Shown here: piece after piece, positions 1 to 55,867 of the stretch
How the letters are laid out: the number at the start of each line of letters is the position of its first letter
Position numbering within the stretch: the first letter of the stretch is position 1
NCBI GenBank assembly: GCA_036703275.1
Contig: DATNPK010000096.1
Coordinates: 1 to 64,000 of the forward strand
Direction of reading: 5' to 3'
Source: Coleofasciculaceae cyanobacterium
GTDB taxonomy: Bacteria; Cyanobacteriota; Cyanobacteriia; Cyanobacteriales; Xenococcaceae
Length of the DNA stretch: 64,000 nt
The notes under the pieces: generated by a model
The model's database searches: none
What the model was told of the DNA's origin: nothing
What the model saw: the letters and a program-made list of their open reading frames with translations, nothing else
Position numbers and translations under genes: made by a program

Positions 1-528
1 GATTATCCATATGGTTATAGTCCAAAGGGAGAAAGATGTTATGCACTTAAATCTGGAAAGAGAAAAGAGAGAGTTAGTTGGGTTGCCGCATTAAAAGAAG
101 GAAAAGTATTTGCTCCATTAACTTTTGAGGGGTCATGCAATCGAGATTTATTTGAAACATGGCTGGAAAAAAGTTTGATTCCTCAACTTCAACCAGGGGA
201 TATCATTATTATTGACAATGCTACTTTTCACAAAGGACAAAATATTCAAGAAATAGTAGAAGAGGTGGGATGTCCTAAAGGACGACGCGAAGCTAGTGGT
301 TTACCATACCGCTTCGCGACGCGTAGGACGCGGAGCTAATCCTTTAGGGCTAGTCCTTTAGGGCATATGAAATTTGGTATCTACCTCCCTATTCTCCTGA
401 TTTGAACAAGATAGAGCGTTGGTGGTCTGTTCTCAAAACTTGGATGAAGCAAAGAGTCAAGGAATTTGAAACTGTTCGAGAATGTGTTGATACAGCTTTC
501 AAAAAATGTCAAACACGTATATGCGTAA
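1..528 (+). mobile_element. IS630-family transposase, partial and disrupted
   Basis: This is the C-terminal part of a DDE transposase of the IS630/Tc1 type, which cuts and pastes DNA at TA sites. Frame 1 reads from the window edge through IIIIDNATFHKGQ (second catalytic Asp, DN motif) to TGT at 271-273. The frame then runs into a foreign 95-bp segment and a stop at 337. The family motif YLPPYSPDLNKIE, carrying the final Glu, resumes in another frame at 369 and continues through WWSVLKTWMKQR to a stop at 526-528 if one small indel near 512 is allowed. The 5' half lies outside the window. Sequence after about 533 is condensation-domain code, so the element sits in an NRPS gene. It is non-functional as it stands. 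Confidence 0.88.
274..368. repeat. MITE-like palindromic repeat inserted in the transposase
   Basis: This 95-bp segment splits the transposase exactly between the codons for VEEVGC and EIWYLPPYSP. It begins CCTAAAGGAC (274-283) and carries the perfect reverse complement GTCCTTTAGG at 353-362, so it has 10-bp terminal inverted repeats. Inside, CGCGAAGC (286-293) pairs with GCTTCGCG (311-318) around a 17-nt loop. Positions 335-364 are identical to 55637-55666. A related element lies near 35.3 kb. No reading frame of its own is visible. The six bases 363-368 outside the right repeat could be part of the element or of the target. Confidence 0.7.
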
Positions 529-540
529 CGCTATACAAGC

Positions 541-3143
541 TTAAACTCTCTGGGATTCGTTGTCATGACTCTCTACTGCTAGAACTTAATTACGATCGCA
601 GTTACTTCTCGCCAGAAGCTATTGAGAGTATTGCTAGGCAGTTTCAAACTTTGTTAGAAGATGCCATACAGCATCCAGAGTCAAGGATAGAGCAATTATC
701 TATTTTGCCTCTGAGCGATCGGCATAAAATTCTCCAAGAGTTTAATCAAACTGCAAAAGACTATCCCCAAAACAAATCTATTCAGCAACTATTTGAGGAG
801 CAGGTACAAAAAACTCCCAATGACATGGCGATTATTTTTGAGGAGCAGCAGTTAACCTATGCCCAACTCAATCAGCAAGCCAATCAATTAGCCCATCACT
901 TGCGAAAGAAGGGAGTTAAACCCGAAGTTTTGGTGGGATTGTACTTAGTAAAAATCCTCTTTAGCCATTGTCGGGCTTTTAGGCATTCTCAAAGCAGGTG
1001 GCGCATACTTACCCTAGATGCCAATCTGCCTACAGAAGCCTTGAGGGAGCGCTTAGAAGATACTCAGATAATCTTAACTCAGCAAAATTTAGTTTCTAAT
1101 TTACCTCAATCTACTAGAGAAATAATTTGTCTAGATGCAGACTGGGAAAAAATAGAGAGTGAAAACGATCTTAATCTAATCAACGCCACAACCAAAGAAA
1201 ATTTGGCATATGTCTTGTTTACTTCTGGTTCGACTGGAAAACCCAAAGGAGTAGCTATTGAGCAGCAACAACTCCTCAATTATTACTATGCTGTTGCCGA
1301 CAGGTTTAATTTAGAAGAGAACAAAAGTTTTGCTCTGGTTTCTTCCCTCGCAGCCGATTTAGGGAATACCGTTGTCTTCCCTGCTTTGTTAACTGGTGGT
1401 TGTCTGCATCTTATCTCGCGCGAAAGAGCAACCAATCCCGAAGCATTTGCTGATTATAGCGCTCGCTATTCCCTAGACTGTCTTAAAATCGTTCCCTCGC
1501 ACTTAAATGCTTTACTTAAGTGCGACCAACCCAGAGAAAATATTGCCCAAAAAATGCTTAATCTTGGGTGGAGAAACCTTAAGCTGGCGATTAGTCCATA
1601 AAGTTCAACAGTATCAACCAAAATGCCAAATTTTCAACCACTATGGTCCTACAGAAACCACTGTCGGAGTTTGTACTTTTGCCATTTCCCCAGAAACAAA
1701 TATTTCTGCATCCGCAACAGTACCTTTAGGAAAACCTTTAGTTAATACTCAAATTTACTTACTCGATCGCAGTTTACAACCAGTACCCATCGGTGTACCA
1801 GGAGAACTCTATATTGGGGGCAAAAATCTCGCACGGGGCTATTTTAACCAACCAGAATTAACTGCTGAAAAATTTATTAAGTTTCAGTCCCATTTGAAGG
1901 CAAGTGAGCAAAGATTATATAAAACTGGAGATAAAGCACGTTATTTAGAAGATGGTAATTTAGAATTCTTAGGCAGAATCGACCGTCAAGTTAAAATTCG
2001 GGGTTATAGGATTGAATTAGGTCAAATAGAGTCCACATTACAACAACATCCTAGTATTAAAGATGCGGTCGTCACAGTTACAGTTGACAAGTGCGATCGT
2101 AAACGTCTTGTTGCTTATATCGTCAAAGATCAACAGCAGAGATTAACTGACGAAGACTTACAAAATTTTCTCAGTCAGAAATTTTACCAGACTATATGAT
2201 TCCCCCTGTCTGGGTACAATTAAAGGCTTTACCTCTGACCCTTAATGGCAAGGTAGATCGACAAGCATTACCAGCACCAGAGTCAGTAAAACCCACTTCA
2301 AGCAAGAATTTTATTTCTCCGCGTAATCCGACAGAGACAGTCCTAGCAGATATTTGGGCGCAGGTATTAGAAATTGAACGAGTCAGCATTGATGATAATT
2401 TCTTTGAGCTTGGGGGAGACTCAATTTTAAGTATTCAAATCGTCGCCAAAGTTAATCAAGCTGGTCTACAAGCTACCCCCAAACAAATTTTTGAATATCT
2501 TACCGTCGCTAGTTTAGCAGTAGAGGTAACTACTAAAGATGCTTCATCAGAGATTGGCTTAACCTCCCCAAAAAATAATAGTTATGAACTCTTATTACCA
2601 GAATTAAAAGATAAAATTCCATCCAATCTTATAGATTCAATTGTAGACATCTATGAACTGACACCCATACAAAAAGGAATCCTGTTTCACAGCTTATATG
2701 ATTCGCAAAACGGACTGTACTTATTCCAAACCACATTTACTGTAAAAGCATTGCTTGATATTGATGCTTTTGCTGAAGCTTGGCAACAAGTAGTACAAAG
2801 ACACATTATCTTACGCACAGGTTTCTATTAGAAAGATGTGTCACAACCGCTACAAGTTGTTTATCAACAAGTAACTGTTCCCTTAGAACATTATGATTGG
2901 CGAGAAATTGAGGTCGAGCAACAGCAAGAACAATTGAACTCTTTTTTAAACAGCGATCGCGCTAATGGCTTTGATCTAGAGAAACCCTGTCCGATGCGCT
3001 TGACTTTATTCCGCCTCGCTGATGACGCCTACGAAGTGGTTTGGACTAGACACTTTATTGTAGCAGATGGTTTGACAATTTTACTACTTCTGAGTGAAGT
3101 CGCACAAATTTATCAAGCTATATGTGAACAACAGTCATTTTAA
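541..3143 (+). pseudogene. NRPS remnant: C(tail)-A-PCP-C(N-half)
   Basis: This is a fragment of a modular peptide synthetase. The order is: the last part of a condensation domain (DSLLLELNYDRSYFSPEAIE, about 570-730), an adenylation domain (A3 LFTSGSTGKPKG near 1216, A5 NHYGPTETTVGV near 1637, A8 about 1975-2020), a carrier (LGGDSILSIQ near 2408, Ser for phosphopantetheine), then the first 170-odd residues of another condensation domain (YELTPIQKGILFHSL). Reading the selectivity positions by eye gives DLTKIGHVGK, close to the published Asp code DLTKVGHIGK. Lesions: two compensating frameshifts near 955 and 1012, frameshifts near 1553 and 2180, and a TAG at 2829-2831 where a Trp is expected. 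The last condensation domain has HF instead of the HH pair in its active-site motif and stops at 3141. Non-functional. Confidence 0.9.
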
Positions 3144-3181
3144 ATAATCGCCTAATTTAATCACCAAATTTAAAAGATCTC

Positions 3182-4440
3182 ATGAAAATTTCTGAACAGT
3201 ACGAATCAAATGTTAGAAGTTACTGCCGTAGCTTTCCTACTATATTTAACAAAGCTAAAAAATCAATTATTTATTCTGAATCTCAGGAATACATCGACTT
3301 TTTAGCAGGGGCAGGAGCATTAAACTACGGACATAACAACGATTACATCAAACAAAAAGTAATAGATTACTTAAATGCTGATGCGATCGCTCATGGTTTG
3401 GATTTTTATACTGCCGCTAAAGAAAAATTTATCGCCAAATTTCATAGTTCTATCCTGTCACCAAGAAAACTAGACTATCGTTTACAATTTTGTGGATCCA
3501 CAGGAACAAATGCGGTGGAAGCTGCCTTGAAACTAGCGAGAAAAGTCAAACAAAGAACGGGAATATTTTCCTTTATGGGGGCATTCCATGGCATGATATC
3601 AGGCAGTTTATCAATTACAGGTAATAAAGAAATTCGGGCTGGTATCTCTGGTATTGCTAATGACGTTACCTTTATGCCTTATTCCCACGGCAAAATGGCA
3701 AATTTTGATACTCTGGAATATTTAGAATCTGTACTCGATGATTCTCATTCAGGTATCGCTAAACCAGCAGCAATTATTTTTGAACCCGTACAAGCAGAAG
3801 GAGGAATTATTGTTGCCCCCAGACAATGGATGCAAGAATTAAGAGCTTTGTGCGATCGGCACGATATTTTATTAATCTGTGATGATATTCAAGTTGGTTG
3901 TGGTCGTACTGGGTCTTTTTTCTCCTTTGAAAGAGCAAATATAGTTCCCGATCTAGTTATTCTTTCTAAATCTATTAGTGGTTATGGTTTTCCTATGTCA
4001 TTAGTCTTAATTAAACCAGAACTAGATATCTGGAAAGCAGGTGAACATACAGAAACTTTTCGAGGAAATCAATTAGCATTTGTGGGGCAACTGCTGCACT
4101 TGAATACCGAGAAAACATCGATATAGAAAAAAAAGTTAAACGAAAATAATTCTTCTTGGAAAACTTTTTAAATCAAAAAATCAAACCAATAGATGATCAA
4201 ATAAAAATAACCGGAATTGGGATGATTTGGGGCATCGATCTTAGTAAATTTAATAATCCAAGTCTAGTCAAAAATATAGGCAATTGCTGTTTTGACCGAG
4301 GATTAATTATTGAACGAGTCGGCAGAGAGGATACCGTTCTCAAGATTTTACCCCCTTTGAATATTGAAATGTCGATTTTGCAACAGGGTTGTTCAATAAT
4401 TCAAGAAGTTCTAATTGATTGTTTAACTAAAGATATTTAA
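3182..4440 (+). pseudogene. Diaminobutyrate--2-oxoglutarate aminotransferase (EctB-like), broken
   Basis: This is a class III PLP aminotransferase. The N-terminus NVRSYCRSFPTIF, the FLAGAGALNYGHNN block, GSTGTNAVEAALKLARK, ICDDIQVGCGRTG and the PLP-lysine block LSKSISGYGFPM are those of 2,4-diaminobutyrate aminotransferases, which make L-2,4-diaminobutyrate from aspartate semialdehyde. Those enzymes supply ectoine, siderophore and lipopeptide pathways. The frame is lost at the GGGG run near 4084-4087. It continues as ATAALEYREN in another frame, hits TAA at 4147, and the C-terminal domain (GIGMIWGIDLSKF to KDI) follows to 4440. The gene sits where the middle of a condensation domain should be: half of one ends 38 bp upstream and the last 40-odd residues of one begin right after. 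It probably supplied a building block to the synthetase. Confidence 0.88.
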
Positions 4441-4441
4441 G

Positions 4442-6554
4442 CAACAAACTGTTGAATTATTTAGTAAATATTATCTTAATGCCTTAATAGCTAATATCAA
4501 TAATGTTGACAATTGTCAAATAGCCGATCTGAGCTTAATTACTGAAGGCGATCGCACTCAGATTTTACAAGAGTTTAATCATAATAGTCGAGAGTATCCA
4601 GTTACCAAAACTATCGATCATTTATTTGAAACACAAGTAAATAGCACATCCGATCGCATTGCAGTCAGCTATAAAAATAATCATTTAACCTATCAACAAC
4701 TGAACCAGAAAGCGAATCAATTAGCGAGATTACTTCAGCGATTAAAGATCCAGCCAGGAGAATTTATCGCTGTTATTAAAGCCAGAGATATTAATTTTTT
4801 AATCTCAATTCTGGCAATTTTAAAAGTAGGCGGGGTTTATATACCGATTGATAGTACTTATCCACCTGAAAGAATTAAACACATGGTTACGGATAGTCAA
4901 GTGAAGATTATTTTAACCGATGCAGCTAGTAAAGAATTTTTAAACGAATTAATTGTAGATTGTCCCGAAGTAAAGCATCTGGTTTGTTTAAATGGAGAAG
5001 AAGTAGGGGCGCAAACCTTGCGCCCAGGAAATAAAGAACACAAAGTAGAGATTAATGATTTCAGGTTTTCTTCAGTAGGAGAAAATTTCGATAATCTTAA
5101 TTTAGAGAGAGCAGGAACAGATTTAGCATATACCATCTACACTTCAGGTTCTACGGGATTGCCCAAAGGAGCGATGATAAGACATGGTTGGGCGATTAAT
5201 CATATTTTTGCTCAATTTGAGGCTTTAAACTTAACCCAAGATTTTACTTTCCTTCAAAGTGCGCCTGCTTCTTCTGATATTTCCGTCTGGCAATTTCTCG
5301 CACCTATCCTTATTGGGGATAAGACTATTGTTGTCGATACGGAAACCACCTGTGATCCTCTCCAGCTATTTCAAACCATTCAACAATCAAAAATCACTTT
5401 GCTCGAATTAGTACCAGCGCTACTTAAAGGGTTACTAGAGTATATTTCCCATTTAGCTCCTGAAGTTAGAAAATTACCATGTCTGCAATGGATGATGGTA
5501 ACAGGAGAGTCGGTTTCAGTAACTTTAGTCAATGATTGGCTCAAGTTATATCCTACTATCCCAATTGTTAATGCTTATGGCCCAAGCGAAGCTAGTGACA
5601 ATATTACTCAAGCAATTATTAAGCAACCCTTACCAGCCAACCAACGCACAGTTCCACATTGGCAAATCATTAGCCAACCTGAATTTATATGTTCTAGACA
5701 GGGATTTAAAATTATTACCTATCGGCGTACCAGGGGAAATATGCGTATCTGGTTATGGAGTTGGTGTAGGTTATTGGCAAAACGAAGAAAAAACCCAAGC
5801 TAATTTTGTTCCCAATCCTTTTCCTGAAACAGCCAAACTCTTACCAGGAGTAGAAATAGATTTACTTTATAAAAGAGATTTAGGGCGATGGTTAGATGAC
5901 GGCAGGATAGAATATCTCGGTAAAATTGATAATCAAGTTAAAATTCGCGGATTTCGGATTGAATTGGGAGAAATTGAAGCAGTTTTAAGTCAACATCCAG
6001 AGATTGAAGCCGCAGTTGCGATCGCTCTAGAAGATGATTCAAGAGATAAAACGTTAGTAGCCTATGTCGTACCTAAAAATATCGGTCTGGTAAATAATAG
6101 TGAACTCATTCTACAGCTACGCCAGTTTCTCGAAGCAAGATTACCCCAGCAGATGATTCCCTCCGCTTTAATGGCTTTACACGCCTTACCACTAAGCCCA
6201 AGTGGCAAAATAGATAAACGAGCATTACCTGAAATTCAAGATGCCCCCAAAGAATTTATCCCACCCCAGACATTGACCGAAAAAACTATAGCAACTATTT
6301 GACAAGAGGTATTAAAGCGAGCGCAAATTAGCTTAGACGATGACTTTTTCGCTCTGGGGGGACACTCTCTGTTAGCTACCCAAGTTATTTCACGCTTAAG
6401 GGAGCAATACCCACAAGAAATACCTTTACGTAGTTTATTTGAAGAGACAACAGTAGCTAAATTAGCTACTTATCTTGACAGGATGCAAAGCCTACAACAA
6501 TTACAGACTATCCCCACGGATCTAGCAAACGATCGCGAGGAAATTGAACTATGA
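4442..6554 (+). pseudogene. NRPS remnant: C(tail)-A-PCP
   Basis: Open reading in frame 2 starts directly after the aminotransferase stop and has no ATG until 4883. The first residues (QQTVELFSKYYLNALIA) are a condensation-domain tail. The adenylation domain follows: A3 IYTSGSTGLPKG near 5138, A4 SDISVWQF near 5275, A5 NAYGPSEASDN near 5569, A8 about 5922-5960. A frameshift near 5660 moves the frame. The selectivity residues read by eye are DIWEMTADNK, which I cannot assign to a substrate. A TGA at 6300-6302 replaces the Trp or Arg expected in the carrier's first helix; the carrier (FFALGGHSLLATQV) then runs to TGA 6552-6554. Its stop overlaps the next start codon (ATGA), so the two synthetases were translationally coupled. 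Confidence 0.9.
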
Positions 6555-9500
6555 AAACCATCAACGAGTTATTATCCCATCTTAATAGTTTAGATGTCAA
6601 ACTCTGGACTGAAGACATCCCAGGAGATACTTCCGAGGTGCGCTTGCGCTGCAATGCTCCGAAAGACGTACTTACACCAGACTTAAAAAGCGAACTAGCA
6701 CAACGTAAAGCAGAAATTTTAGAGTTTCTGCTTCAGCTTAACCTGTCTTCAACTGCGATCAAACCCGTTTCCCGAACTGATAATATCTCTCTATCCTTTG
6801 CTCAACAACGGTTATGGTTTGTCGATCGCTTAGAACCAGGGAATCCTTTTTATAATCAACCCGCTGCTTTACGTTTAACTGGTGAGCTTCAAATTGACAT
6901 CCTAGAACAGAGTTTGCAGGAAATTATTAGACGACATGAAATTTTAAGAACCACATTTACCACCGTCGCAAGACAAACCGTTCAAGTTATTAAGTCAGAA
7001 GTTAATTTTCAGCTTCTAGTCATCGATATAAGTAATTTATCACCAATCGAAAAAGAAGCAAAAGTTAAACAACTAGCACCACAAGAAGCGCGATATCCAT
7101 TCGACTTAGAACGAGACTTATTACTGCGAGTTAAACTGCTAAAATGCGATCGTCAAGAACATATAATTCTATTTACTACTCACCATATCGTCTCTGATGG
7201 CTGGTCAACAGGCATTTTAATTCAAGAAATAGCTACTCTCTATCAAGCATTTCTGGCAGGAAAACCATCCCCATTACCAGAACTTCCAATTCAATATGTT
7301 GACTTTGCTCTGTGGCAACGAGATTATTTGCAAGGAGAAACACTAGAGACTCAAAAAAATTATTGGCTCCAGCAATTAGAAAACGCTCCTAAAATTTTAG
7401 AACTACCTACAGACCATCCAAGACCAGCAACTCAAACTTTTCGAGGTGCAAAATACTCATTTAACTTATCTCAAGAATTATCCGCAGCTTTAAATAAATT
7501 GAGTCAGCAGCAGGGAAGTACCCTTTTTATGACTCTTCTAGCAGCATTCGAGACAATGCTATGGCGTTATACAGGACAAGAAGATATTGTAGTCGGTACT
7601 ACCATTGCCAATCGTAACCGAGCAGAAATAGAAGGGTTAATCGGGTTTTTCGTTAATACCTTAGTGTTGAGAACTAGTTTGACGGGAGAACCGAGTTTTG
7701 AAGAATTACTCAAGCGAGTGCGAGAAGTAGCATTAGGAGCTTATGCCCATCAGGATTTGCCTTTTGAATTGTTGGTTGAGCAATTACGACCAGAGCGACA
7801 CTTAAGCTATACACCACTTTTTCAAGTAATGTTTGTGCTTCAGAATGCTCCAATGTCGGCATTAGAGTTACCTGGTTTGACTTTGAGCACATTGGAAGGT
7901 GAAAGTGATACTTCTACTTCTAAGTTCGATCTAACTCTATATATGACAGAAACCGAGTCTGGATTAGAGGGATGTTTTGAATATAATACTGACCTATTTG
8001 AGCCTACAACTATTACTCGAATGGTAGGACATTTACAGACAATGCTTGAGGCAATTGTTGCTAATCCGCAACAGCGTTTGTCAGAACTACCATTCTTAAC
8101 TAAACCAAAACAGCAGCAGTTATTAGTCGAATGGAATAACACTCAGGTAAATTATTCTCAAGATCAATGCCTACATCAACTATTTGAAGCCCAGGTAGAG
8201 AAAACACCTGATGCGATCGCAGTTGTTTTTGAAGATGAAGCATTGACCTATACACAATTAAATCAAAAAGCCAATCAACTAGCGCATTATTTAAAGTCTC
8301 TCGAAGTTGCTTCGGGAGTGCTGGTGGGCATCTGTATTGAACCATCCTTAGAACAAGTGGTGAGCTTGCTGGGTATTCTCAAAGCTTAGATCCCAACTAT
8401 CCGCAAGAAAGACTGGCATTCATGCTGGAAGATTGCAATGTGCGTATCATATTGACGAAGTCAGAGGAGTTGCGCGAGCTTGCATCGCCCAAAGCTCTGA
8501 CTTGGCAATCTCTGACCGAAAAGATTTCTTCTCAACAAGCCCATATCGTCTGTCTGAATAGGGATAAAGATGCCATTGCTAGAGAAAGTGTTGCCAATTT
8601 AAATTATCAAACACCACTGGATGATCTGGCATATGCCATCTATACATCAGGCTCTACTGGAAGACCTAAAGCCGTTCTCGGAAAAATTCGCGGCATTGTC
8701 AATCGCCTGCATTGGATCTGGGAAACTATACCATTTACAGCAGATGAGGTTTGCTGTCAAAAAACATCCATCAATTTTGTCGACCATGTCGCGGAGATAT
8801 TTTCTCCTCTTCTCAAAGGAATTCCTCTGGTAATCGTTCCCGATAATGTACGGAGCGATATCCCCCAGCTAATGAGCTTGTTAAGCGATAAAAAAATAAC
8901 TAGAATTGTTCTCGTTCCATCATTGCTAAGAGTAATACTGAACAGTGCGCCCCAACAACTGTCACAACTTCAACATCTTAAATATGTCTTTTGTAGCGGG
9001 GAAGCCCTGCCATTAAAGTTGGCTGAAACATTTCACCAGAAACTCAGTTCAGCCAGATTGTTCAATTTTTATGGCTCTTCAGAAATTGCTGCTGATGTTA
9101 CCTGCTTTGAAGTTAATTTTTGGGAAACACGCCAAAGAATACTGCAATATTTCAAGCCAGAAGTTGTTCGTGGTGCATCTGAAGATCGGGTTCTTGGGGT
9201 TTATCAAAAACCTTTTACCAAGCCTGGCGTAAGTCCAGAAATGCTGGCTACAAAATTTCAACGGAGCGAGTTGCCTTTACATCCGATAACAGTTGACGAT
9301 TATCACGATAGATTTACCCAAGAGGTACTTCCATACGCGATCGATACAGCATCTCCTACATTTATTGGGCATATGACATCGGCTTTGCCCGATTTTATGC
9401 ACGATATGAGCAAGATTATCTCGCGATTAAACCAAAATCTAGTCAAAATCGAAACATCAAAGTCTTTGATCTTTTTGGAACGAGAGGCGATCGCCATGCT

Positions 9501-11777
9501 GCATCGTCTTGTTTACAGCTTTTCAGGTAAATTTTACACGGAAAATATTCAGCAGAAAAATTACAATCTGGGGATTATTACAACTGGCGGTACAACGGCA
9601 AACATTAGTGCCTTATTATGTGCGCGAAATTCAGGATTGTTAACCAAAGAAAAGTCTGGTGAGTTATCAAAAGAAAGCCTTTACAAAGTTCTGAGTCACA
9701 AAGGATATCAAGATATTGTTATCATTGGCTCTCGGCTAATGCATTACTCTCTCAATAAGGCAGCTTCCATATTAGGTCTGGGGACAGACAATATTGTTTT
9801 TATTGACAGTAATGATGACGCAAATTTAAATCTCAATCTGCTGGAAGCAAAAATCCGCGAGTGCAGAAGAAATAAGCTCTACATCCTGGCACTTGTGGGC
9901 ATCCCTGGAACAACAGAAACTGGTGAAATCGATCCTTTATGGGAAATGGGCGAAATCGCCCAGGAATTCGGCATTCATTTTCATGTGGATGGTGCTTGGG
10001 GTGGTGCGACGATATTTTCCGATAAGCATAAAGGAAAATTAAAAGGAATTGAGCGAGCTGATTCTATAACTATTTGTGGTCATAAACAGTTATATCTACC
10101 TCAAGGTATCAGTGTTTGTCTGTTTAAAGATCCGCAGATGTTAAACTCTGCGGCAACCACAGCTCGTTACCAAGCTCAGCAAGATACATTTGATGTGGGA
10201 CGATTCACAATTGAGGGATCACGCTCAGCGATTTCGTTGTGCTTACACAGTGCGCTTCATATTATCGGCAAAAGGGGATACGAGATCCTAATTAACAATG
10301 GCATAGAGAAAGCCCAATATTTTTCCAGACTTATAGAATTACTTAAACCGTTTGAACTTTTAATGCCACCAGCTTTGAATATCGTTAATTATCGATATAT
10401 TCCTAATGATTTAAGAGTAAAAGCACAACAAAAATCTTTGAGTGGCGATGACATCCAAAGAATTAATCAACTCAATACACAGATACAAAGAGAACAATTT
10501 GAACAGGGAATGATATCTAAGACTACTTTGATGGACACTGCCTATGGCAAAGACCAAGAAATTGTTGTATTTAGGGCTGTTTTGTCCAATCCAAATACAA
10601 CCGCTACAGATTTGCAAACTGTTCTTGAAGATCAATTGAGAATCGCCAATCAAATTGAAACAAGAAGTAACGATGAATCGAATGGTATAAAAGATCTCTC
10701 AGTTCAAGGAATTGGCTCGGATGATAGGGAAACTGCTGTCGTGCAAAAAGAAGCAATACATTTGCGGTTAGCGGACGATCTAAAAGCGGATTTAAAGAAT
10801 ATCTCCAAAAAAATACGGTTTCAATTGGAAAACCGATTGCCAACACACAAATATATATTTTGGACAAATATGGCAATCTTCTACCGCCGGGTATTACGGG
10901 GGAGCTATATGTAGGGGGAGATGGACTGGCACAAGGGTATTTAAATATGCCTGAGTTAACCCAGGAAAAGTTTATCCTCAATCCGTTTATTAAAGACAAC
11001 GGTAAAACTAAAAAAGCAAAAGAAGCAAGATTGTATCGGACTGGAGACTTAGCCCGCTGGCTGCCAAATGGTCATATCGAATTTCTAGGACGCATCGATC
11101 ACCAAGTGAAGGTTCGCGGTTTTCGCATCGAATTGGGAGAAATTGAAGCTGTTGTCAGCCAGCACCCAGCAGTCCGAGAAGCTGTAGTATTAGTCAGGGA
11201 AGACTCAGTAGATTCTCAACAAATAGTCGCTTATGTAGTTGCTCAACAAGAGCAAACTCTGACGATTACAGAACTACGGGAATTTTTGGAATCAAAGTTA
11301 CCAAACTACATGATTCCCAATGCTTTGCTTTTATTAGAGGCGCTACCATTAACACCTAATGGCAAAGTTGACCGTAAAGCACTACCTGTACCCGACCAAG
11401 TACGTCCTGAATTGGAAGCAGTTTATCTAGCACCTCAAACTGAGGTAGAAAAAACTATTGCTGATATTTGGCAAGAAGTTCTTGGTATTGAAGACGTTGG
11501 TATTCACGATAATTTCTTTTAACTAGGCGGTCATTCACTGCTTTTGGTTCAAGTTCATAGTAAGTTGCAAAAAATATTTCAGCAACTTTCATTAGTTGAT
11601 GTTTTTCAATATCCAACCATCAACTATTTAGCTAAATATTTAACTAAGTTACAGAAAAAAACACAAGTTGTTCGAGAAAATGTTCGTCAAAATAAAAGTC
11701 GCACGGCTTCAATGAATCGTCGAAAACAAGCTCGACAAAATTATCAGACTACAAAGTATCAATCAAATAAAGAATAA
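6551..11777 (+). pseudogene. NRPS remnant: TubC-C-A[PLP decarboxylase]A-PCP
   Basis: Residues 1-55 (MKTINELLSHLNSLDVKLW) form a TubC-type N-terminal docking domain. The condensation domain has the intact HHIVSDGWS motif near 7183. The adenylation domain starts about 8120. A 19-nt loss at 8385 removes the GGAYVP motif and ends the frame; it resumes as LDPNYPQERLAFM. A3 (IYTSGSTGRPKA), A4 (FVDHVAEIF) and A5 (NFYGSSEIAADVT, 9064) follow. Then comes a complete PLP decarboxylase (separate entry). From about 10818 the adenylation domain picks up in a frame shifted by one A lost from an A-run (VSIGKPIANTQIYILD, GELYVGGDGLAQGYL, GRIDHQVKVRGFRIELGE). The carrier is broken by TAA 11520-11522 where the Glu of FFELGGHS belongs. 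The tail after the carrier is basic and unlike a thioesterase. Confidence 0.92.
9118..10817 (+). other. PLP-dependent decarboxylase domain embedded in an adenylation domain
   Basis: About 567 residues, the size of a free-standing group II PLP decarboxylase, lie between core motifs A5 and A6. Visible landmarks are PTFIGHMTSALPDFMHDM (substrate-side N-terminal segment), ITTGGTTANISALL (phosphate binding), HVDGAWGGATIFSD (Asp523 of the local frame, pairs with the pyridine N) and GHKQLYLPQG (Lys555, Schiff base). The layout and the sequence around the Lys resemble the PanP/glutamate-decarboxylase group; PanP makes beta-alanine from aspartate. The domain itself has no stop or frameshift from start to end, although the host gene is broken on both sides. 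The substrate (Asp, Glu or other) cannot be fixed by eye; the beta-alanine-like code of the host adenylation domain favours Asp. Confidence 0.88.
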
Positions 11778-11856: not shown

Positions 11857-14800
11857 ATGGACATAGAAAATAATTTAGTTGATAGCTTTCATGATAAAGA
11901 TGAAATGGCTATTATCGGTATGGCAGGTCGTTTTCCTGGTGCAAATAACGTCAATATTTTTTGGCAAAATCTGCAAAATAGTATAGAGTCAATTTCTTTT
12001 TTTACTGATGAAGAATTATTATCTACAGGAGTAGAACCCACACTATTGAGTGACCATCGATATGTGAAAGCGGGTACTGTATTAAAAGATATAGAACTAT
12101 TTGATGCTTCATTTTTCGGTTTAACTCCTAAAGATGCAGAAATTACAGACCCGCAACACCGTATTTTCATGGAATGTGCTTGGTCAGCTTTACAAGATGC
12201 TGGTTATGATTCGGCAACTTATACTGGTCAAATAGGTCTTTTTGCTGGTACTACCGTCAGTAATTATTTATTATCAAATTTATATCCTAATCAAGATTTT
12301 ATAAAATCAGCTGGCGCGTTCCCCATTTTTATAGGCAATGATAAAGACCATCTAACTACACAAATTTCTTATAAGTTAAATCTTAAAGGACCAAGTGTAA
12401 ATGTTCAGACCACCTGCTCTACATCATTGGTGGCAGTTCACTTAGCCTCTCAAAGTTTATTAAATGGAGAAAGCGATATTGCACTTGCAGGTGGTGTTTC
12501 GATACAAGTTCCCCAAAAAACTGGTTATTTGTATCAAGAAGGAGAGATTAATTCTCCTGACGGACATTGCCGAGCCTTTGATGCTCAAGCTCAAGGAACT
12601 ATTTTCGGTAGCGGTTCGGGTGTGGTGGTCTTGAAGCGATTGTCAGACGCTGTTGTTGATGGCGATCGCATTCATGCGGTAATCAAAGCTTCAGCTATCA
12701 ATAATGATGGTTCTTTGAAGGTTGGATACACTGCTCCCAGTGTTGATGGTCAAACAGAGGTAATTTTAGAAGCACTAGCTTTGGCTGAAGTTGAACCAGA
12801 AACCATTAGCTATATCGAAGCTCATGGAACAGGAACCCCTTTAGGAGATCCGATTGAAATCGCGGCTCTCACACAAGCGTTCCGTACCAGAACAAATAAA
12901 AAAGGTTTTTAGCGCGATCGGGTCAGTCAAAACTAATATTGGGCATTTGGATGCAGCAGCGGGGGTAACAGGATTAATTAAAACTGTACTAGCACTAAAA
13001 AACAGACAAATACCTTCCAGTTTGCACTTTCAAGAACCAAATCCCCAAATAGATTTCGCCAATAGTCCCTTTTACGTTAATCATAAGTTATCAGAGTGGA
13101 AAACTAACGGGACACCTCGCAGAGCAGGTGTAAGTTCTTTTGGCATTGGTGGAACTAATGCCCATGTAATCTTAGAAGAAGCTCCCATGATTGAAGCTTC
13201 TGATGCTTCCCGTCCTTACCAATTATTGTTACTCTCAGCCAAAACCAGCACAGCTTTAGATACTGCAACAGCACAACTGCACACTTATTTTGAGCAAAAC
13301 CCCGATATTAACCTACCTGATGCAGCTTATACCTTACAAGTAGGTCGCCGGGATTTTGACTATCGCCGTGTAGTAATTTGCCAAGACCTAAATGATGCGG
13401 TGGAATCCCTTCACAGTCAAGACCCTCAAACTATTTTGAGTCACCATCATAAGTCAAATCACTGTCAGGTTATCTTCATGTTTTCAGGACAAGGCTCGCA
13501 ATATACAAACATGGGGAGAGAACTGTATGAAGTAGAACCAACATTTACAGAACATGTAGATATCTGCGCCGAAATTTTGCGATCGCACCTTGGTCTTGAT
13601 ATCCGTTCTCTACTTTACCCCAAGCACGAAGAGATTGAAACCGCTTCTAAACAACTTCAGCAAACAGCTCTCACCCAACCTGCTTTATTTGTTACAGAGT
13701 ATGCTTTAGCTCAGTTATTTTTATCTTGGGGAGTGTGCCCACAAGCAATGATTGGTCATAGTATTGGGGAATATGTCGCCGCAACTATTTCAGGTGTATT
13801 TTCTTTGGAAGATGCCTTAAAAACTGTGGCAAAAAGGGGACAGTTAATGCAACAAGTACCCCCAGGAAGTATGTTGGCAATTAAGCTTCCAGAAAAAGAG
13901 GTGTAGTTGTTGCTCGATAGAAACCAGTTGCCTCAACAATCCTTACAAATTGCAGTAGTTAACAGTCCATCTTCCTGTGTAGTTTCTGGAACAAACCAAG
14001 CCGTTGTAGCCTTAGAAAAGCAATTATCTTCTCAAGAAGTTCAATGTCGGCTGTTGCATACATCTCATGCTTTTCATTCTGTGATGATGGAACCTATCCT
14101 AAAAGCATTTAGCGAGGTATTCAAAACAGTCAAACTGAATGTACCACATATACGCTTTATTTCTAACGTAACTGGTGATTGGATTACTGAAAAACAAGCT
14201 ACAAATCCAGATTACTGGTGCCAACATTTACGAAAAACTGTAAGATTCTCGGATGGTATGTCCCAATTAGTACAGCAGTTTGAAGGTGTTTTTCTTGAAG
14301 TAGGACCGGAAAGAACTTTAAGCACATTGACGAGACAGCATTTAGATAGAAATACTCAGCAACAGATATTAACATCTTTACCTCATGTCAAAGAGCAACA
14401 ATCAGATGTTCGCTTTTTATTGCAAACATTAGGTTTGTTATGGCTTAGAGGTGTAGAAATAGATTGGTCGAAGTTTTATACTCATGAGCATCGTCATCGT
14501 TTGCCTTTGCCAACTTATCCTTTTGAACGACAAAGATACTGGATTGATGCTAAATCCCCTTCACCTTCTATAGATCAAAAATTAACAGCATCAGACAATA
14601 AACAAGATATCGCTAACTGGTTTTATGTGCCTTCATGGAAACGTTCTTTACTGTCTAATTCTCCCTCTAGTCAAATACAATCTAAATCAGAAAATTGGCT
14701 GTTTTTTATAGATGATCTAGAAATAGGCAAGCAATTAGTTGACGTATTTGGGAGTCAAGATAAAATGTTATTACTGTAAAGAAAGGAGAACAGTTTAGCA

Positions 14801-16282
14801 AATTAAGTGAAGACATTTATACAATAAATCCATTTAGAAGGGAAGATTACGATACTCTAATTAAAAAATTAGAATTATCAGGTCAAAAACTAGAACAAAT
14901 TGCTTATTTATGGAGCGTAAGTCATGATGAAACAAATCAATTAGGAAAATATTTAGAATTCAATAGTTTATTATTTCTCACCCAAAGCCTGAGTAAGCTA
15001 AAAATGAATAATAGCTTACGAATTTCGGTTATATCAAACAACATTCAAGATGTTAATGGTAATGAAAAACTCGACCCAGAGAAATCAGCAATATTAGTCT
15101 TGTGTAAAGTCATTCCGCAAGAGTATCCTAATATTAGCTGTAAGTGTATTAATATTGTTTTAACTAACCTCACAGACACACAAGAAAGACCAAAATATCA
15201 TCAAAGTATTATTGACCAACTTTTGATTGAGTTAACTTCTGTATCCTCAGATAATGTCGTTGTTTATCGCGATCGCTACCGTTGGATACAAACATTTGAA
15301 CCAGTTAGATTAGAATTAGTTGTTGACGAAAAAATACCTTTAAGAAAACAAGGCGTTTACCTATTTCCTGGAGGACTAGAAAGTATTGAAGTTGTGCTTG
15401 CAGAATACTTAGCAAAAACTTTTCAAGCGAAACTCATATTTATTGAGGATTCTACATTCCCAGAAAAAGATGATTTCTCACAATGGCTTGAAACTTATAC
15501 TAAAGATGATGAAGTGAGTTACAAAATTCAACAATTATTAGCATTAAAAAATAATGGGGCAAAAGTTTTAGTACTGCGTACAGATAAAACTAATTATGAG
15601 CAAATGTATCAAATCCTTGCCACTGAAAATATTGGACAAATTAACGGGGTTATTTGTTCAACTGAAATAAAGCGCAAACATATATTTGCTTCCATTCCAG
15701 AAATTACAACCACCAAATTAGAAAATAATTTAAAATTACAACCTCGTAAAATTTTAGTATTAGAACGAGTATTACAGAATAAAAACTTGGACTTTTGTCT
15801 AGTGTTTTCTTATTTATCTTCTATTTTAGGAGGATTTGGATTAGGTTTATATTCAGCAAGTAAGCAGTTAACAAATACTTTTATTAACCGACACAATCAC
15901 GATAATTGTTTACCATGCTATATTATAGATTGGGATAAATTAGAACTGAATGGAAATTAGAAACAAACAACGCTAGAGCAAGTATCTGGTTCAAAATTAG
16001 CTATTACCTCAACAGAAATAATAGAAGTATTCAAACGAATATTTTCTTTAAATTTAGGTGCGCAAATTATTCTTTTAACGGTAAATATAACTACGAGTAA
16101 AAATCAAATATTTAACCTGAATAAGAAAGAAAATGCACAATCTAATAATCAATTAGATTTAGGTTCGCATTACTCTAGACCTGGCCTTAGTATATTCCTA
16201 TGTTGCTCACACAAATAATTTAGAAAAACAAATTACGGAAATATGGCAAGAAGTACTTGGAATTGCAGAAATTGGTATGTAA
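11857..16282 (+). pseudogene. Type I polyketide synthase remnant: KS-AT-KR(degenerate)-ACP(start)
   Basis: A ketosynthase opens the protein: active-site Cys in TTCSTSLVA (near 12410) and His in EAHGTGTPLGD and NIGHLDAAAG. The acyltransferase has GHSIGEYVAA (near 13755) and HAFHSVMME; the HAFH motif is typical of malonyl-CoA specificity. A ketoreductase-type region follows. Its nucleotide loop reads GGLESIE instead of GGLGGIG and its active-site Asn position is Lys (LYSASK), so it may have been structural only. A carrier starts at ITEIWQEVLGIAEIG and is cut off at TAA 16280-16282. Lesions: frameshift near 12900, TAG 13904, frameshift near 14770, TAG 15958, frameshift near 16190. It sits 79 bp behind the NRPS and would have added one malonate unit. 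No thioesterase is seen. Confidence 0.9.
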
Positions 16283-16326
16283 TCCCCTAGATCTCTGGCT
16301 AGAAAGAGAATCAAAAAATCCAAGAT

Positions 16327-16440
16327 TATGAGAAATTTGAGCAATTTGTAAAGCAACATCAGGACAAGACACAACGTCAAATAGCAGAGTCGTGGGGAGA
16401 AAATCTGACTCAGCAAAACGTAAGTGATGGAATCAAAATA
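16327..16440 (+). mobile_element. IS630-type transposase N-terminal remnant
   Basis: The translation YEKFEQFVKQHQDKTQ, then RQIAESWGENLTQQNVSDGI, matches the helix-turn-helix start of IS630-type transposases, which typically read as a ...TQ..IA..WG...TQQNIS... pattern. Only about 38 codons remain and there is no catalytic part. It follows the truncated carrier domain by about 45 bp and so marks the downstream edge of the decayed synthetase cluster. It could come from the same element type as the transposase at the left edge. Confidence 0.65.
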
Positions 16441-17049: not shown

Positions 17050-17568
17050 ATGAAAGCAATAATAATTAACGCATACGGCAATGAAGACGTTTTGGATTAC
17101 GTCGATGTCGAACGTCCAGAGCCGAAAGTGGACGAAGTTCTGGTGAAAGTTCACGTCGCGGCGGTCAATCCGGCTGACTGGAAAATCCGCGATGGGATGG
17201 GCGAAAGTTTCGGGTTCAAACTTCCGCCTCCCGATAATTTTCCACCTGACGATTGGCGGCGGCATAGTCCCCGCTTTCAAGGCGAGAATTTTTACCGCAA
17301 CTTAAAACTGGTCGAAGAAATCAAGCAAATCGCCGCTCAGAAACAGTGTACGCCTGCTTAACTTGCACTTGCCTGGCTGTTGGCAAAAGGCGAGGACATC
17401 ATCCCCATTCCCGGAACGAAATGTCAAGCACGGCTGCATGAAAATGTAGGGGCATTGGAGATTGTGTTGACGGCTGACGAACTGCAACAAATTGAAGCAA
17501 TGCTTCCGATTGGCTCTGCTGCGGGAACTCGCTATACCGAAGCATTAATGCACTTCGTTAATCGTTAG
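17050..17568 (+). pseudogene. Chimeric remnant: MDR oxidoreductase start joined to aldo/keto reductase end
   Basis: Codons 1-57 ([20 protein letters not shown] … [13 protein letters not shown]) are the start of a zinc-type alcohol dehydrogenase/quinone oxidoreductase. From about 17225 the same frame reads [17 protein letters not shown] and AAQKQCTPA, the C-terminal third of an aldo/keto reductase. TAA at 17359-17361 stands where the family has Gln (CTPAQLALAWLL), and the frame goes on through IPIPGTK and [14 protein letters not shown] to 17568. Two unrelated genes have therefore been joined, probably by a deletion, and the product is further broken by the stop. Confidence 0.75.
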
Positions 17569-17681
17569 TTAGACCGCAGCGCGCAGCTTAACTGAAGCAC
17601 CGATATCAATCAGAATGCTCATCATCATCAGACGGAACAATTTTTGCCCTTCAGGGGCTGAAACAATTACAGAACCTACTC

Positions 17682-18522
17682 ATGCAAAACACTTGCGAAC
17701 AAATGAAAGCAATGGCTGTGGACGAGTTCGGCGGACCAGATAAGCCAACTTTGCATACCTTACCGCTGCCTGCGGTGGACGCGGGCGAAGTTTTGATTCG
17801 CATCGAGATCGCCGGAATTGGCATCTGGGAGAGGTTGGAGCGCGAAGGTGAGCTAGTGTATAACGAAGTCCACTTCCCGCGCGTGCTGGTCGGCAACGGC
17901 GTCGAGCGGTTTGCCGTCGGCGATCGCGTTTACGCACAAATCTTCATGAATGACAAGGGAGGTAGCTATGCCCAATATGTCGTCGTCTCCGAAAAAACGG
18001 TCGCGCCAGTACCTGATGGTATCGATATGCTGATGGCGGGCGGACTGCCCATTGCCGGTGCGACGGCGCTAAACTAATTTGAATGTGCTGGGGACGGGCG
18101 AGGAGACCCGATTGATGCTGTGGGGTGCAAGCGGCGGCGTCGGTCACGTCGCGCTTCAACTGGCTCAAGCGCATGGGCGTGCAGGTTTTCGCCATTGCGC
18201 CCGACGGCTTTGATGCTGCGCTGGTGCTGGTGGGCGGCGACAAAGTTCAATCCAGCCTCAGTTTGGTGCGTCAGGGCGGGATCATTGCCTTCCCTAACGG
18301 CGTGATGCCTGAACCCAAAGCGCCCGAGGGTGTGGAACTGAAAAAGGCAATATGGCTTCGCCGACCCAGTGTTGTTCGACCAACTCAACCGATTGGTGAG
18401 CATCGGTGAGTTTCAAGTTCGCATCGCGCAGACGTTTCCGCTCGAAGAGGCGGCGCAAGCGCACAAAGCAATGAAAAAGCATTATCGGGGCAAAATCGTG
18501 TTGCGCGTGAGCGACGAATAAG
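17682..18522 (+). pseudogene. MDR-superfamily quinone oxidoreductase, G+C-rich, broken
   Basis: The start (MKAMAVDEFGGPDKPTLHTL), GVERFAVGDRVYA, LMLWGASGGVGHVALQLA (nucleotide-binding loop) and the end (FPLEEAAQAHKAMKKHYRG-KIVLRV) mark an NADPH:quinone-reductase-like medium-chain dehydrogenase. TAA at 18075, a frame change near 18165 and another near 18345 break it. About 30 residues after the nucleotide loop are missing (MGVQVFAIAPDGFDAAL). The DNA is clearly richer in G+C than its neighbours on both sides, which suggests acquisition from a high-G+C donor followed by decay. Confidence 0.8.
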
Positions 18523-18604
18523 AGCCTGTCTAAAGAATGTCGCTAGGAGTCTAGACGTGCGGTAGGTAATGTTCAATATGTAATGATAGGCTGTCCTACT
18601 GTCG

Positions 18605-18981: not shown

Positions 18982-19974
18982 TTATTTGCTCCATTCATCC
19001 CACACTGCTCGCGATATTTTTGCGATCGCTGCTTCACGAGTTGCAATATCAGCCTTGGCATCTGATACAAAGATTGCGATCGCAAAATGGTGCCCATTCG
19101 GTAGCGTCACAAGTCCTACATCATTGGTGGCAGCCGTAACCCCATCGACAGTACTCGATGTACCAGTCTTGTGAGCTACAGGTGTTCCTGTGGGCAACAT
19201 GCCTTTAATACGCTTTAAACCTGTAGATGTCTCCATCATCAATTGCAGCAATAAGGTTTGACTCGATTCTGAAAGCCCTTGTCCTTTATGGAATGAACGC
19301 AATAGAACGACAGTAGTATCAGATGTTGCATAGTTGCGATACTGCACTGCTTTGTCTTGTGCTAGCTCCTTCTCTGTGTTAGCCACAACGATGTCGTTGA
19401 CTCCAAGACTCTGCACATACTGAGTCACAATCTTGGGTCCACCGATAAGTCGTAACAGCATATCGCAAGCTGTATTATCACTGTCAGAGACCATGTACTT
19501 CAAGAGTTCAGCTAGACTGAATTCCTTCCCCTGCGAATTCTGGTCTAGGGCTACACTAAACTGGACAACATCGCTTCTCTCAACACGAACTCTTTGATCT
19601 AGTTTTAATTTTCCTCGATCAACCTGAGCTAGCACAGCCATTGCAATGGGAAGCTTATAAACGCTTTGCATCGGAAATCGCTGTTCTCCATTGAGCGTCA
19701 CTGATTGTCCGGTTTCTAGTACCATAGCTGTAACTCCAACGCGCCCCTGAGCAGTGCGAGTAATTTGCTCAATGCGTTGGCGTAGCCTCTCCTTTGGAGA
19801 ATCGCGTAATTCGTTTTCGTTGCCAGCGTTAGAGGTTATAACCTCTAACGGTAAATTCGTTTGGCTGTCTTGTTTGCCCTCTGTTTGATTGGAGCCACTG
19901 CCTTTACAACCAACAGTTAAAAAAGACAAGCAAACTATGTAAAGCCACACTCTTTTAATCATTACTTGAATCAT
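18982..19974 (-). CDS. Class A beta-lactamase, predicted lipoprotein
   Basis: This 330-residue serine beta-lactamase hydrolyses beta-lactam rings in the periplasm. Visible motifs are SVYK (Ser104-Lys107), SDN (165-167), a Glu-rich omega region (EKELAQ, 201-206) followed by YRNYAT, and HKTGTS (268-273). The YRNYAT block after the omega loop recalls the A2 subclass (PER/CfxA-like) rather than TEM, but this needs an alignment. The N-terminus has a hydrophobic run ending LTVGC (Cys23), a lipobox, so it is likely membrane-anchored. The first two Met codons (1 and 5) are both possible starts. The gene stands alone; base composition fits the host rather than the G+C-rich patch before it. Confidence 0.92.
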   Translation of the reverse strand: MIQVMIKRVWLYIVCLSFLTVGCKGSGSNQTEGKQDSQTNLPLEVITSNAGNENELRDSPKERLRQRIEQITRTAQGRVGVTAMVLETGQSVTLNGEQRFPMQSVYKLPIAMAVLAQVDRGKLKLDQRVRVERSDVVQFSVALDQNSQGKEFSLAELLKYMVSDSDNTACDMLLRLIGGPKIVTQYVQSLGVNDIVVANTEKELAQDKAVQYRNYATSDTTVVLLRSFHKGQGLSESSQTLLLQLMMETSTGLKRIKGMLPTGTPVAHKTGTSSTVDGVTAATNDVGLVTLPNGHHFAIAIFVSDAKADIATREAAIAKISRAVWDEWSK

Positions 19975-55531: not shown

Positions 55532-55867
55532 TTAACATTGAACATTGAACATTGAACATTTATCAGCCTTCAGGATAATAAGTTTCATCTTAGTTCGATT
55601 CTCATTATTTGCGACGCGAAGGACGCGCCTCCAGGCGCTAATCCTTTAGGGCTAGTCCTTTAGGGCGTAGCTTATCCTTTAGGACTTATTACGCTTTGCT
55701 AAAATTTACGAGCGCAATTGTTAACCAAGAAGTATTGGATGGCGATCGCCTGGTTGCTGTTTGCCAATTAATTATCTATATAATAATTAATCAAATACAA
55801 CTAGACTTCAGACCCTAAAAGATTTAGCATTAGCTACTAAGCAAAAAAATGTGATAGAGGAAAGAGT
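55532..55867. repeat. Intergenic region with a palindromic repeat element
   Basis: Four GAACATT-type units (55535-55560) follow the stop codon. At about 55608-55695 lies a repeat element: GCGACGCGAAGGACGCG, then the 30-bp block 55637-55666 identical to 335-364 in the transposase element, then another CTTATCCTTTAGGAC copy. The rest is A+T-rich and contains the leader of the TRAP genes. Confidence 0.65.

What the first reader, a model, noticed from the sequence alone, without database searches (positions are those of the whole stretch)
8120..11500. NRPS adenylation domain interrupted by a complete PLP-dependent decarboxylase
Seen: one gene reads A3, A4 and A5 (NFYGSSE, 9064), then about 567 residues of a decarboxylase with PLP Lys (GHKQLYLPQG) and Asp (HVDGAWGG) intact, then A6-A10 and a carrier. 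The host frame is continuous with the decarboxylase at the 5' side. At the 3' side it is out by exactly one base in a run of seven A (restoring one A gives ISKKNTVSIGKPIANTQ). Known: interrupted adenylation domains usually carry methyltransferase, oxidase or ketoreductase parts, at other positions. I do not know a described case with an amino acid decarboxylase between A5 and A6. Inferred: a self-feeding module that decarboxylates aspartate beside the pocket that loads the product.
Basis: partly seen in the sequence, partly recalled or inferred. Interest (0 to 1): 0.92.

Follow-up and report, generated by a model that had tools for sequence, protein, structure and literature searches.

The report
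Decarboxylase inside a peptide-assembly enzyme
In some cyanobacteria a complete aspartate-decarboxylase-like enzyme is built into the part of a peptide-making machine that picks its building block, so one protein probably makes and loads beta-alanine; the copy in this window is a recently broken one, and one such fusion was already noted in print in 2013.

Summary
A complete PanP-like PLP decarboxylase lies between motifs A5 and A6 of an NRPS adenylation (A) domain. It is no chimera of this assembly: eight other genomes carry the same A(N)-decarboxylase-A(C)-carrier layout in one open frame. The window copy is a pseudogene: two frame changes and a premature stop in this gene, nine frame changes across the cluster, none in 15 ordinary genes further along. 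The architecture is not new in kind: JamL (jamaicamide) was described in 2013 as a Pyridoxal_deC domain embedded in an A domain, function unresolved. What I did not find in print is how it arose. The five best-matching uninterrupted A domains sit just upstream of free panP genes; 30 of 31 free panP loci have an NRPS or carrier part just upstream. One Nostoc assembly line corresponds but keeps the decarboxylase as a separate gene. In one genus the gene has apparently left the A domain again. Most likely role: L-Asp to beta-alanine, loaded by the surrounding A domain (inferred; no assay).

The parts
6551..8389 (+). Start of the same NRPS gene: TubC_N docking domain, condensation domain, A1-A2 of the A domain; its frame ends here
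   Evidence: Pfam; frame compared with intact relatives
8371..9114 (+). A domain, N-terminal part (A2/A3 to A5), pocket code VDAVFSFAD; in a different frame from the condensation domain
9115..10790 (+). Inserted PanP-like PLP decarboxylase with linker (Asp in HVDGAWGG at 9982, Lys in GHKQLYLPQG at 10078), in frame with the A3-A5 part
   Evidence: Pfam PF00282; TIGR03799 508 bits (cutoff 606); motif positions; matched stretch 9079-10698
10788..10881 (+). Zone of the 3' frame change between decarboxylase linker and A6
   Evidence: overlapping tblastn matches in two frames; contains a run of seven A
10788..11522 (+). A domain, C-terminal part (A6-A10) and the first part of the carrier domain, ending at a premature stop
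11523..11774 (+). Rest of the carrier domain (LGGHSLL) after the premature stop
   Evidence: PF00550 with X at the stop
11857..16279 (+). PKS gene that also follows the module in Mastigocoleus and Plectonema; three frame changes, and its end is missing
   Evidence: match stops at residue 1483 of 1554 of the relative
402..6551 (+). Upstream NRPS genes and EctB-like aminotransferase of the same decayed cluster; intact counterparts in a same-genus genome (G496)

Best explanation
The finding is the decayed copy of an interrupted NRPS adenylation domain of the JamL kind. In intact relatives one polypeptide holds C - A(N) - PLP aspartate-decarboxylase-like enzyme - A(C) - carrier. Most likely the embedded enzyme turns L-aspartate into beta-alanine at or beside the A domain, and that A domain adenylates beta-alanine and loads it on the next carrier, for the following module (a PKS in the window and in three of eight relatives, NRPS modules or a thioesterase in the others). 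By descent, a free decarboxylase gene encoded beside a beta-alanine-type NRPS module was moved once into the A5-A6 loop of such an A domain, came to be patchily spread among cyanobacteria, and in one genus was apparently set free again. Shown by sequence: architecture, intact copies, kept catalytic residues, purifying selection, gene neighbourhoods, trees, decay of the window copy. Inferred: substrate, reaction order, channelling, dimer formation, direction and number of the moves.
For: Eight intact copies, in open frames of 1789-3755 aa; dN/dS 0.086-0.171 in the 21 pairs of seven copies, window included. PanP (TIGR03799) is the best NCBIfam model for the window frame's decarboxylase and for three of three relatives tested (508-530 bits). 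PLP Lys, Asp, His and the C-terminal Arg are the same in seven of seven embedded copies examined and in the panP-type free enzymes (two distant free enzymes have Lys for the Arg). Pocket code VDAVFSLAD in eight of eight intact embedded copies (window VDAVFSFAD); VDWV[IV]SLAD in six of eight modules next to panP. The five best uninterrupted A-domain hits all lie beside a free panP gene. 30 of 31 free panP loci have an NRPS or carrier part just upstream on the same strand, 27 with an A-domain part. Nostoc sp. UHCC 0926: NRPS - panP - PKS (69% over 1550 aa) - C-A-T-TE (76% over 1370 aa) lines up with Mastigocoleus, where the decarboxylase is inside. Embedded A domains are one clade (100/100), joined to the VDW type with 100/99.
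Against: Embedded enzymes score below PanP's equivalog cutoff (606.1) while three of three free relatives tested pass it. The pocket differs from the recalled beta-alanine code at two of nine positions, and a text search for that code found no paper. In Nostoc UHCC 0926 the module directly upstream of panP has a different code (DILQLGMIW) and the VDW-type domain is in the last module; another panP-side module (L106) reads DVWHISLID. The two trees place G667/G637 differently: with the window and Hyella in the decarboxylase tree (91/81), outside the other seven in the A-domain tree (90/91); on the latter, two insertions cost no more steps than one insertion and one escape. Both structure predictions failed (mean pLDDT 36 and 39). 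No assay, no product known.
Confidence: 0.6

Rival explanations
1. Load first, decarboxylate later: the A domain activates L-Asp through its side-chain carboxylate and loads it on the carrier; the embedded enzyme then removes the alpha-carboxylate from carrier-bound Asp, leaving beta-alanine on the carrier.
For: In AFC-BC11 biosynthesis the A domain AfcQ activates L-Asp, not beta-alanine, and the PLP decarboxylase AfcP acts on carrier-loaded Asp (PMC12186527, section 9 read). Methyltransferases inside A domains act only after loading (PMC11355689, passages). All nine embedded A domains have Ala at pocket position 239, where the nine VDW-type domains have Trp; this could make room for a carboxylate.
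Against: The nine pocket positions hold no basic residue to bind the extra carboxylate, whereas an Arg is proposed for AfcQ from a model with docking. The sister A domains have what I recall as a beta-alanine code. PanP enzymes are named for free Asp. The pocket change is a single event in one clade.
Confidence: 0.22
2. The embedded enzyme handles a substituted aspartate (such as 3-methyl-Asp), and the module loads a substituted beta-alanine.
For: Methyl-beta-alanine is a unit of cryptophycin (PMC6835634, passages); that a decarboxylase makes it (CrpG) is recalled. The pocket differs from the recalled beta-alanine code at two positions.
Against: No methyl-aspartate-forming enzyme appeared among the eight Mastigocoleus neighbour proteins scanned; the rest of that genome was not searched for one.
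Confidence: 0.12
3. The join is a misassembly, or a local rearrangement unique to this strain.
For: In the window the frame is broken on both sides of the A3-A5/decarboxylase stretch.
Against: Eight other genomes, among them six named genera, hold the same junction in one open frame.
Confidence: 0.01
4. The frame breaks in the window are sequencing errors and the gene is intact in the living strain.
For: Three of the eight zones examined contain a run of six or seven A; dN/dS of the window copy is not raised (0.110-0.164 against six relatives).
Against: Nine frame changes in about 15.8 kb of the cluster against none in 15 of 15 ordinary genes, about 15 kb aligned, of the same contig compared with a same-genus genome. 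A premature stop in the carrier, a PKS whose match ends 71 residues early, and repeat-element matches at 1-537 and 16314-16438.
Confidence: 0.08

Closest known systems
JamL of the jamaicamide pathway (Lyngbya majuscula; UniProt Q6E7J8), in Milano et al. 2013, PMC3870968
   Same: Listed as KS-AT-ADH-KR-CP-C-HxxPF-A-PLP4-A-CP with PLP4 = Pyridoxal_deC, and described as embedded within the adenylation domain (abstract, passages and section 7 seen). Cyanobacterial; same order C-A-Dec-A-CP.
   Different: The text I saw gives no insertion point; I did not have the sequence, so same clade and same A5-A6 junction are untested. JamL carries a PKS module before its condensation domain. The paper says the function was not clarified.
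Free PanP aspartate 1-decarboxylase (TIGR03799) encoded beside NRPS/PKS modules
   Same: About 42-49% identity, same catalytic motifs; found beside the modules whose A domains match the embedded one best. Also beside NRPS genes on plasmids of Gloeocapsopsis dulcis, Paenibacillus polymyxa M1 and Mycetohabitans rhizoxinica.
   Different: Separate protein; embedded copies form their own clade (with two freed genes inside it) and those tested fall below the PanP cutoff.
Interrupted A domains with methyltransferase, oxidase or ketoreductase inserts
   Same: A complete catalytic domain in an A-domain loop, giving a bifunctional A domain (PMC11355689, passages).
   Different: Those insertions lie typically between a8 and a9, sometimes a2 and a3; here between A5 and A6, and the inserted activity probably makes the building block.
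AfcQ/AfcP/AfcK of AFC-BC11 (Burkholderia), PMC12186527
   Same: A-domain protein, PLP decarboxylase and carrier jointly turn L-Asp into carrier-bound beta-alanine (section 9 read).
   Different: Three separate proteins, VinN-type A domain that activates Asp itself. Sequence relation to the embedded enzyme not tested.

Membership tests
Interrupted A domain with embedded Pyridoxal_deC (JamL kind) | PF00282 flanked on both sides by parts of one A domain | tested here: met
   AMP-binding in two or more stretches plus PF00282 in six of six named relatives, with A6-A10 placed after the insert by alignment; two more by BLAST of the parts; window pieces
Interrupted A domain with embedded Pyridoxal_deC (JamL kind) | All parts in one polypeptide | tested here: met
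   Met in eight of eight relatives without stops; not met in the window, which has frame changes on both sides and a premature stop
Interrupted A domain with embedded Pyridoxal_deC (JamL kind) | Same insertion point as JamL | not tested
   JamL sequence not held; the text seen does not state the point
PanP aspartate 1-decarboxylase (TIGR03799 equivalog) | Score above curated cutoff 606.1 | tested here: not met
   Window 508.3, three relatives 520.0-529.5; three of three free homologues tested pass with 609.3-627.4
PanP aspartate 1-decarboxylase (TIGR03799 equivalog) | PLP Lys, Asp, stacking His and substrate Arg present (roles by analogy with glutamate decarboxylase) | tested here: met
   The same in seven of seven embedded copies examined
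PanP aspartate 1-decarboxylase (TIGR03799 equivalog) | Decarboxylates L-Asp to beta-alanine | not testable with these tools
   Needs an assay
Beta-alanine-activating A domain | Pocket code VDWVISLAD(K) (recalled) | tested here: inconclusive
   Seven of nine positions equal in eight of eight intact embedded copies, six of nine in the window; the nine VDW-type sister domains match at seven to nine of nine

The most novel reading that the evidence does not exclude
An enzyme moved from an operon into the substrate gate it serves, and later out again. A free aspartate decarboxylase gene next to a beta-alanine-type NRPS module was swallowed whole by an A5-A6 loop. The pocket of that A domain changed at the same stage (Trp to Ala, Ile/Val to Phe), perhaps because it now holds aspartate by its side-chain carboxylate while the embedded enzyme decarboxylates it on the neighbouring carrier. 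In one genus the decarboxylase has gone back to a free gene with no NRPS parts on its contig.
Probability: 0.2. Interest if true: 0.8.

Novelty: new member of a known kind. Interest (0 to 1): 0.58.

Why it matters
Interrupted A domains are used to build bifunctional modules, but the ones in the review I saw carry tailoring domains at a8/a9 or a2/a3. A natural A5-A6 insertion of a 560-residue enzyme that probably makes the building block shows that this loop tolerates a large, probably dimeric guest, and offers a ready cassette for placing beta-alanine. The set of states found here (separate gene beside the module, enzyme inside the A domain, enzyme free again, broken copy) makes the route from operon to fusion testable with living strains. 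It also suggests that many genes annotated as panP for pantothenate in cyanobacteria serve peptide or polyketide assembly.

Tried and rejected
Structure prediction of the intact Mastigocoleus A-Dec-A stretch (10-row alignment; mean pLDDT 36.2) and of the decarboxylase alone (7 rows; 39.0) failed, probably for want of alignment depth; neither was searched against folds. A first tree and motif table read minus-strand loci on the wrong strand and are discarded; corrected. A search for JamL's kin in the family of G084, guessed to be Moorena's, gave 0 of 20 and tells nothing. Misassembly and sequencing error were considered and rejected (rival explanations). Literature: ten searches. The JamL word search drowned in an unrelated gene of that name. 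Passages of PMC3252866, PMC10127204 and PMC13126170 were seen and gave nothing on an embedded decarboxylase. A review of interrupted A domains (PMC8341866) is not held, and Edwards et al. 2004 on jamaicamide was not looked up, so prior art beyond Milano 2013 may exist.

Dropped or merged before counts: L037 is the same contig as L005 (G357, G505), and L065 (G518, G506) the same contig as L006; each counted once. The housekeeping control printed matches of at least 65% identity to frames of at least 200 aa. One search examined the 31 free panP loci; several share a genus; lower-ranked matches without a locus, the more distant decarboxylases and the two freed genes (L095, L096) were not in it. 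Of 14 plasmid records with a match five were viewed. The ninth frame-change zone was not examined for homopolymers. The genome-contig scan works by short peptide patterns, so its six loci are a lower bound.
Full report
What is in the sequence. The frame 8422-10914 holds an A-domain N-terminal part and, without a break, a PLP decarboxylase. The A-domain C-terminal part follows in another frame. The gene begins further upstream with a TubC_N docking domain and a condensation domain (6551-8389), and these too are in a different frame from the A3-A5 part. The carrier domain has a premature stop at 11520-11522.

Is it real? Yes. One pattern-based scan of a collection of 84,980 species genomes with the insert gave six loci: Plectonema (L002), a Richelia MAG (L003), Mastigocoleus testarum (L004), an Acaryochloris MAG (L005), Hyella patelloides (L006) and a Moorena MAG (L007). 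In six of six the match lies in one long open frame with condensation, AMP-binding, Pyridoxal_deC, AMP-binding_C and carrier domains; the alignment shows A6-A10 resuming after the insert. Two more copies (G667, G637) have the same layout in frames of 3222 and 3186 aa. In all eight, 557-574 residues stand between DVTxFEV (after A5) and IPIGKPI (A6), with no stop. In the two uninterrupted panP-side domains (of six tried) where the pattern could be measured, 10 and 13 residues follow VT before A6.

The window copy is dead or dying. Comparison with relatives shows nine changes of reading frame between about 0.46 and 16.28 kb, a premature stop and a PKS whose match stops at residue 1483 of 1554. 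The same test on ordinary genes at 20.4-39.4 kb against the same-genus genome G019 gave 15 of 15 in one frame, nearly full length. So this is not general sequencing error, and only three of eight zones examined contain a run of six or seven A. DNA matching a multi-copy repeat of same-genus genome G046 lies at the contig start (1-537) and at 16314-16438, just past the PKS end. Decay is probably recent: dN/dS of the window's decarboxylase against six relatives is 0.110-0.164, within the range of the relatives among themselves, 0.086-0.171. Intact versions of the upstream genes exist in same-genus genome G496, where the gene that matches the window's condensation domain (71%) goes on with an ordinary uninterrupted A domain.

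What the insert is. The best NCBIfam model is PanP, the PLP aspartate 1-decarboxylase (508 bits for the window, 520-530 for three relatives; cutoff 606), ahead of diaminobutyrate decarboxylase. PDB kin are mostly named as PLP decarboxylases, among them glutamate decarboxylase 1; the top one is labelled a diaminobutyrate transaminase. The PLP lysine, the aspartate, the histidine and the C-terminal arginine are the same in seven of seven embedded copies examined (roles by analogy). Three of three free cyanobacterial homologues tested pass the PanP cutoff, so formally the embedded enzymes are PanP-like, not PanP.

What the A domain selects. All nine pocket positions checked lie before the insertion (mapped by core motifs, numbering recalled). 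Eight of eight intact embedded domains read VDAVFSLAD, the window VDAVFSFAD. Modules next to free panP genes read VDWV[IV]SLAD in six of eight; the other two read quite differently. I recall VDWVISLADK as a beta-alanine code, but a text search did not find it. The embedded domains are one clade (100/100), joined to nine VDW-type domains with 100/99. Beta-alanine is therefore the best guess, with room for a changed or substituted substrate.

Where it came from. In a sample of 388 genomes of the class, the five best uninterrupted hits to the embedded A domain (54-58% identity) all lie directly upstream of a free panP gene (at most five candidates per genome were scored). The next two do not: G460 gave no panP match at 1e-100, and in G483 the hit is a later module. 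Conversely, 30 of 31 free panP loci examined have an NRPS or carrier part just upstream on the same strand, 27 of them an A-domain part. Of five plasmid loci viewed, panP follows an NRPS gene in three (Gloeocapsopsis dulcis, Paenibacillus polymyxa M1, Mycetohabitans rhizoxinica), a PKS gene in Chroococcidiopsis, and neither in Cupriavidus basilensis. The locus of Nostoc sp. UHCC 0926 (L104; the plasmid was identified by equal length and position) is the most telling. Its NRPS (condensation 75%, A C-part 68%, carrier 64% identical to Mastigocoleus) is followed by free panP, then a PKS (69% over 1550 aa), then C-A-carrier-thioesterase (76% over 1370 aa). In Mastigocoleus the same order exists with the decarboxylase inside the A domain and the PKS frame opening right after the NRPS; its genome gave no other decarboxylase match above 29% identity. 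Against a simple story: in Nostoc the A N-part just before panP is only 45% identical and has a different code, and the VDW-type A domain is in the last module; the last modules of Mastigocoleus and Plectonema are of that type too. The embedded enzyme may therefore feed two modules there. What follows the embedded module varies: a PKS in L002 and L004 and, by its first residues, L003; a thioesterase in L007; NRPS modules in L005, L006, G667 and G637.

One insertion, one escape. Embedded and operon-type free decarboxylases fall into separate clades (100/100). With two distant free enzymes in the tree, the embedded clade sits among the free panP enzymes with moderate support (86/86). Two genomes of the genus of G667/G637 (G652, G623) carry free genes 74-75% identical to the insert, on contigs of 11.0 and 6.1 kb without NRPS parts, beside a glycerol-3-phosphate-dehydrogenase-like gene named by eye. 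They group with the embedded copies of their own genus (100/100) inside the embedded clade, which reads most simply as release from the A domain. The place of this foursome is weak (91/81), and the A-domain tree puts G667/G637 outside the other seven (90/91); on that view two insertions would cost as many steps, though the shared junction and single A-domain clade favour one. Both free genes read WGV where the embedded copies read WGG.

How it may work. Shown: architecture and conservation. Inferred: the insert makes beta-alanine from Asp, the A domain loads it, and, since free enzymes of this fold are dimers or tetramers (PMC3870968, abstract), the guest may dimerise the synthetase. Whether decarboxylation precedes or follows loading is open. 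AFC-BC11 gives a precedent for decarboxylation of carrier-bound Asp, while the lack of a basic residue among the nine pocket positions speaks for beta-alanine as the adenylated substrate.

Comparison with the known. Milano et al. 2013 (abstract, passages and section 7 seen) list JamL as A-PLP4-A-CP and say that the decarboxylase is embedded in the adenylation domain with unclear function. That is the same kind of object. A 2024 review (passages) gives interruptions at a8/a9 and a2/a3 by methyltransferase, oxidase and ketoreductase domains and has no word beginning with 'decarboxyl' in its main text. My ten searches did not turn up a description of the separate-gene, embedded and released states, but the library lacks most subscription papers.

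Verdict. Observation confirmed; architecture real and rare (4 of 388 sampled genomes of the order and 2 of 388 of the class, the window's genome included in both); precedent known; window copy a pseudogene; the origin from a neighbouring gene is the new and testable part.

Noticed in passing
window 18982-19974 (-): Open 330-aa frame of the beta-lactamase enzyme family (PF13354, 8.1e-51), next to the decayed cluster in a stretch of about 50% GC. Resistance not tested.
   Followed up: partly
window 17050-18409: Broken pieces of quinone-oxidoreductase or alcohol-dehydrogenase-like genes (weak ADH_N matches in two pieces); DNA at 17677-18535 is 75-78% like a stretch of same-genus genome G046. More decay next to the cluster.
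   Followed up: partly
window 1-537 and 16314-16438: Matches a repeat of same-genus genome G046; the part 1-263 has at least 13 close copies there. Window 313-367 also recurs at 55608-55669. Probably an insertion element that ends the contig and borders the truncated PKS.
   Followed up: partly
L095:1652-3259 and L096:2029-3726 (genomes G652, G623): Free decarboxylase genes nested inside the embedded clade, both beside a glycerol-3-phosphate-dehydrogenase-like gene and with no NRPS parts on their contigs: a possible enzyme released from an NRPS.
   Followed up: partly
L008-L020, L038-L042, L070-L082: Free cyanobacterial panP genes lie just downstream of NRPS or carrier parts in 30 of 31 loci, so the automatic label 'pantothenate biosynthesis' (seen) may often be wrong.
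   Followed up: yes
window 3182-4126: EctB-like diaminobutyrate aminotransferase inside the NRPS cluster, cut by a frame change; intact at 437 aa in same-genus genome G496.
   Followed up: partly
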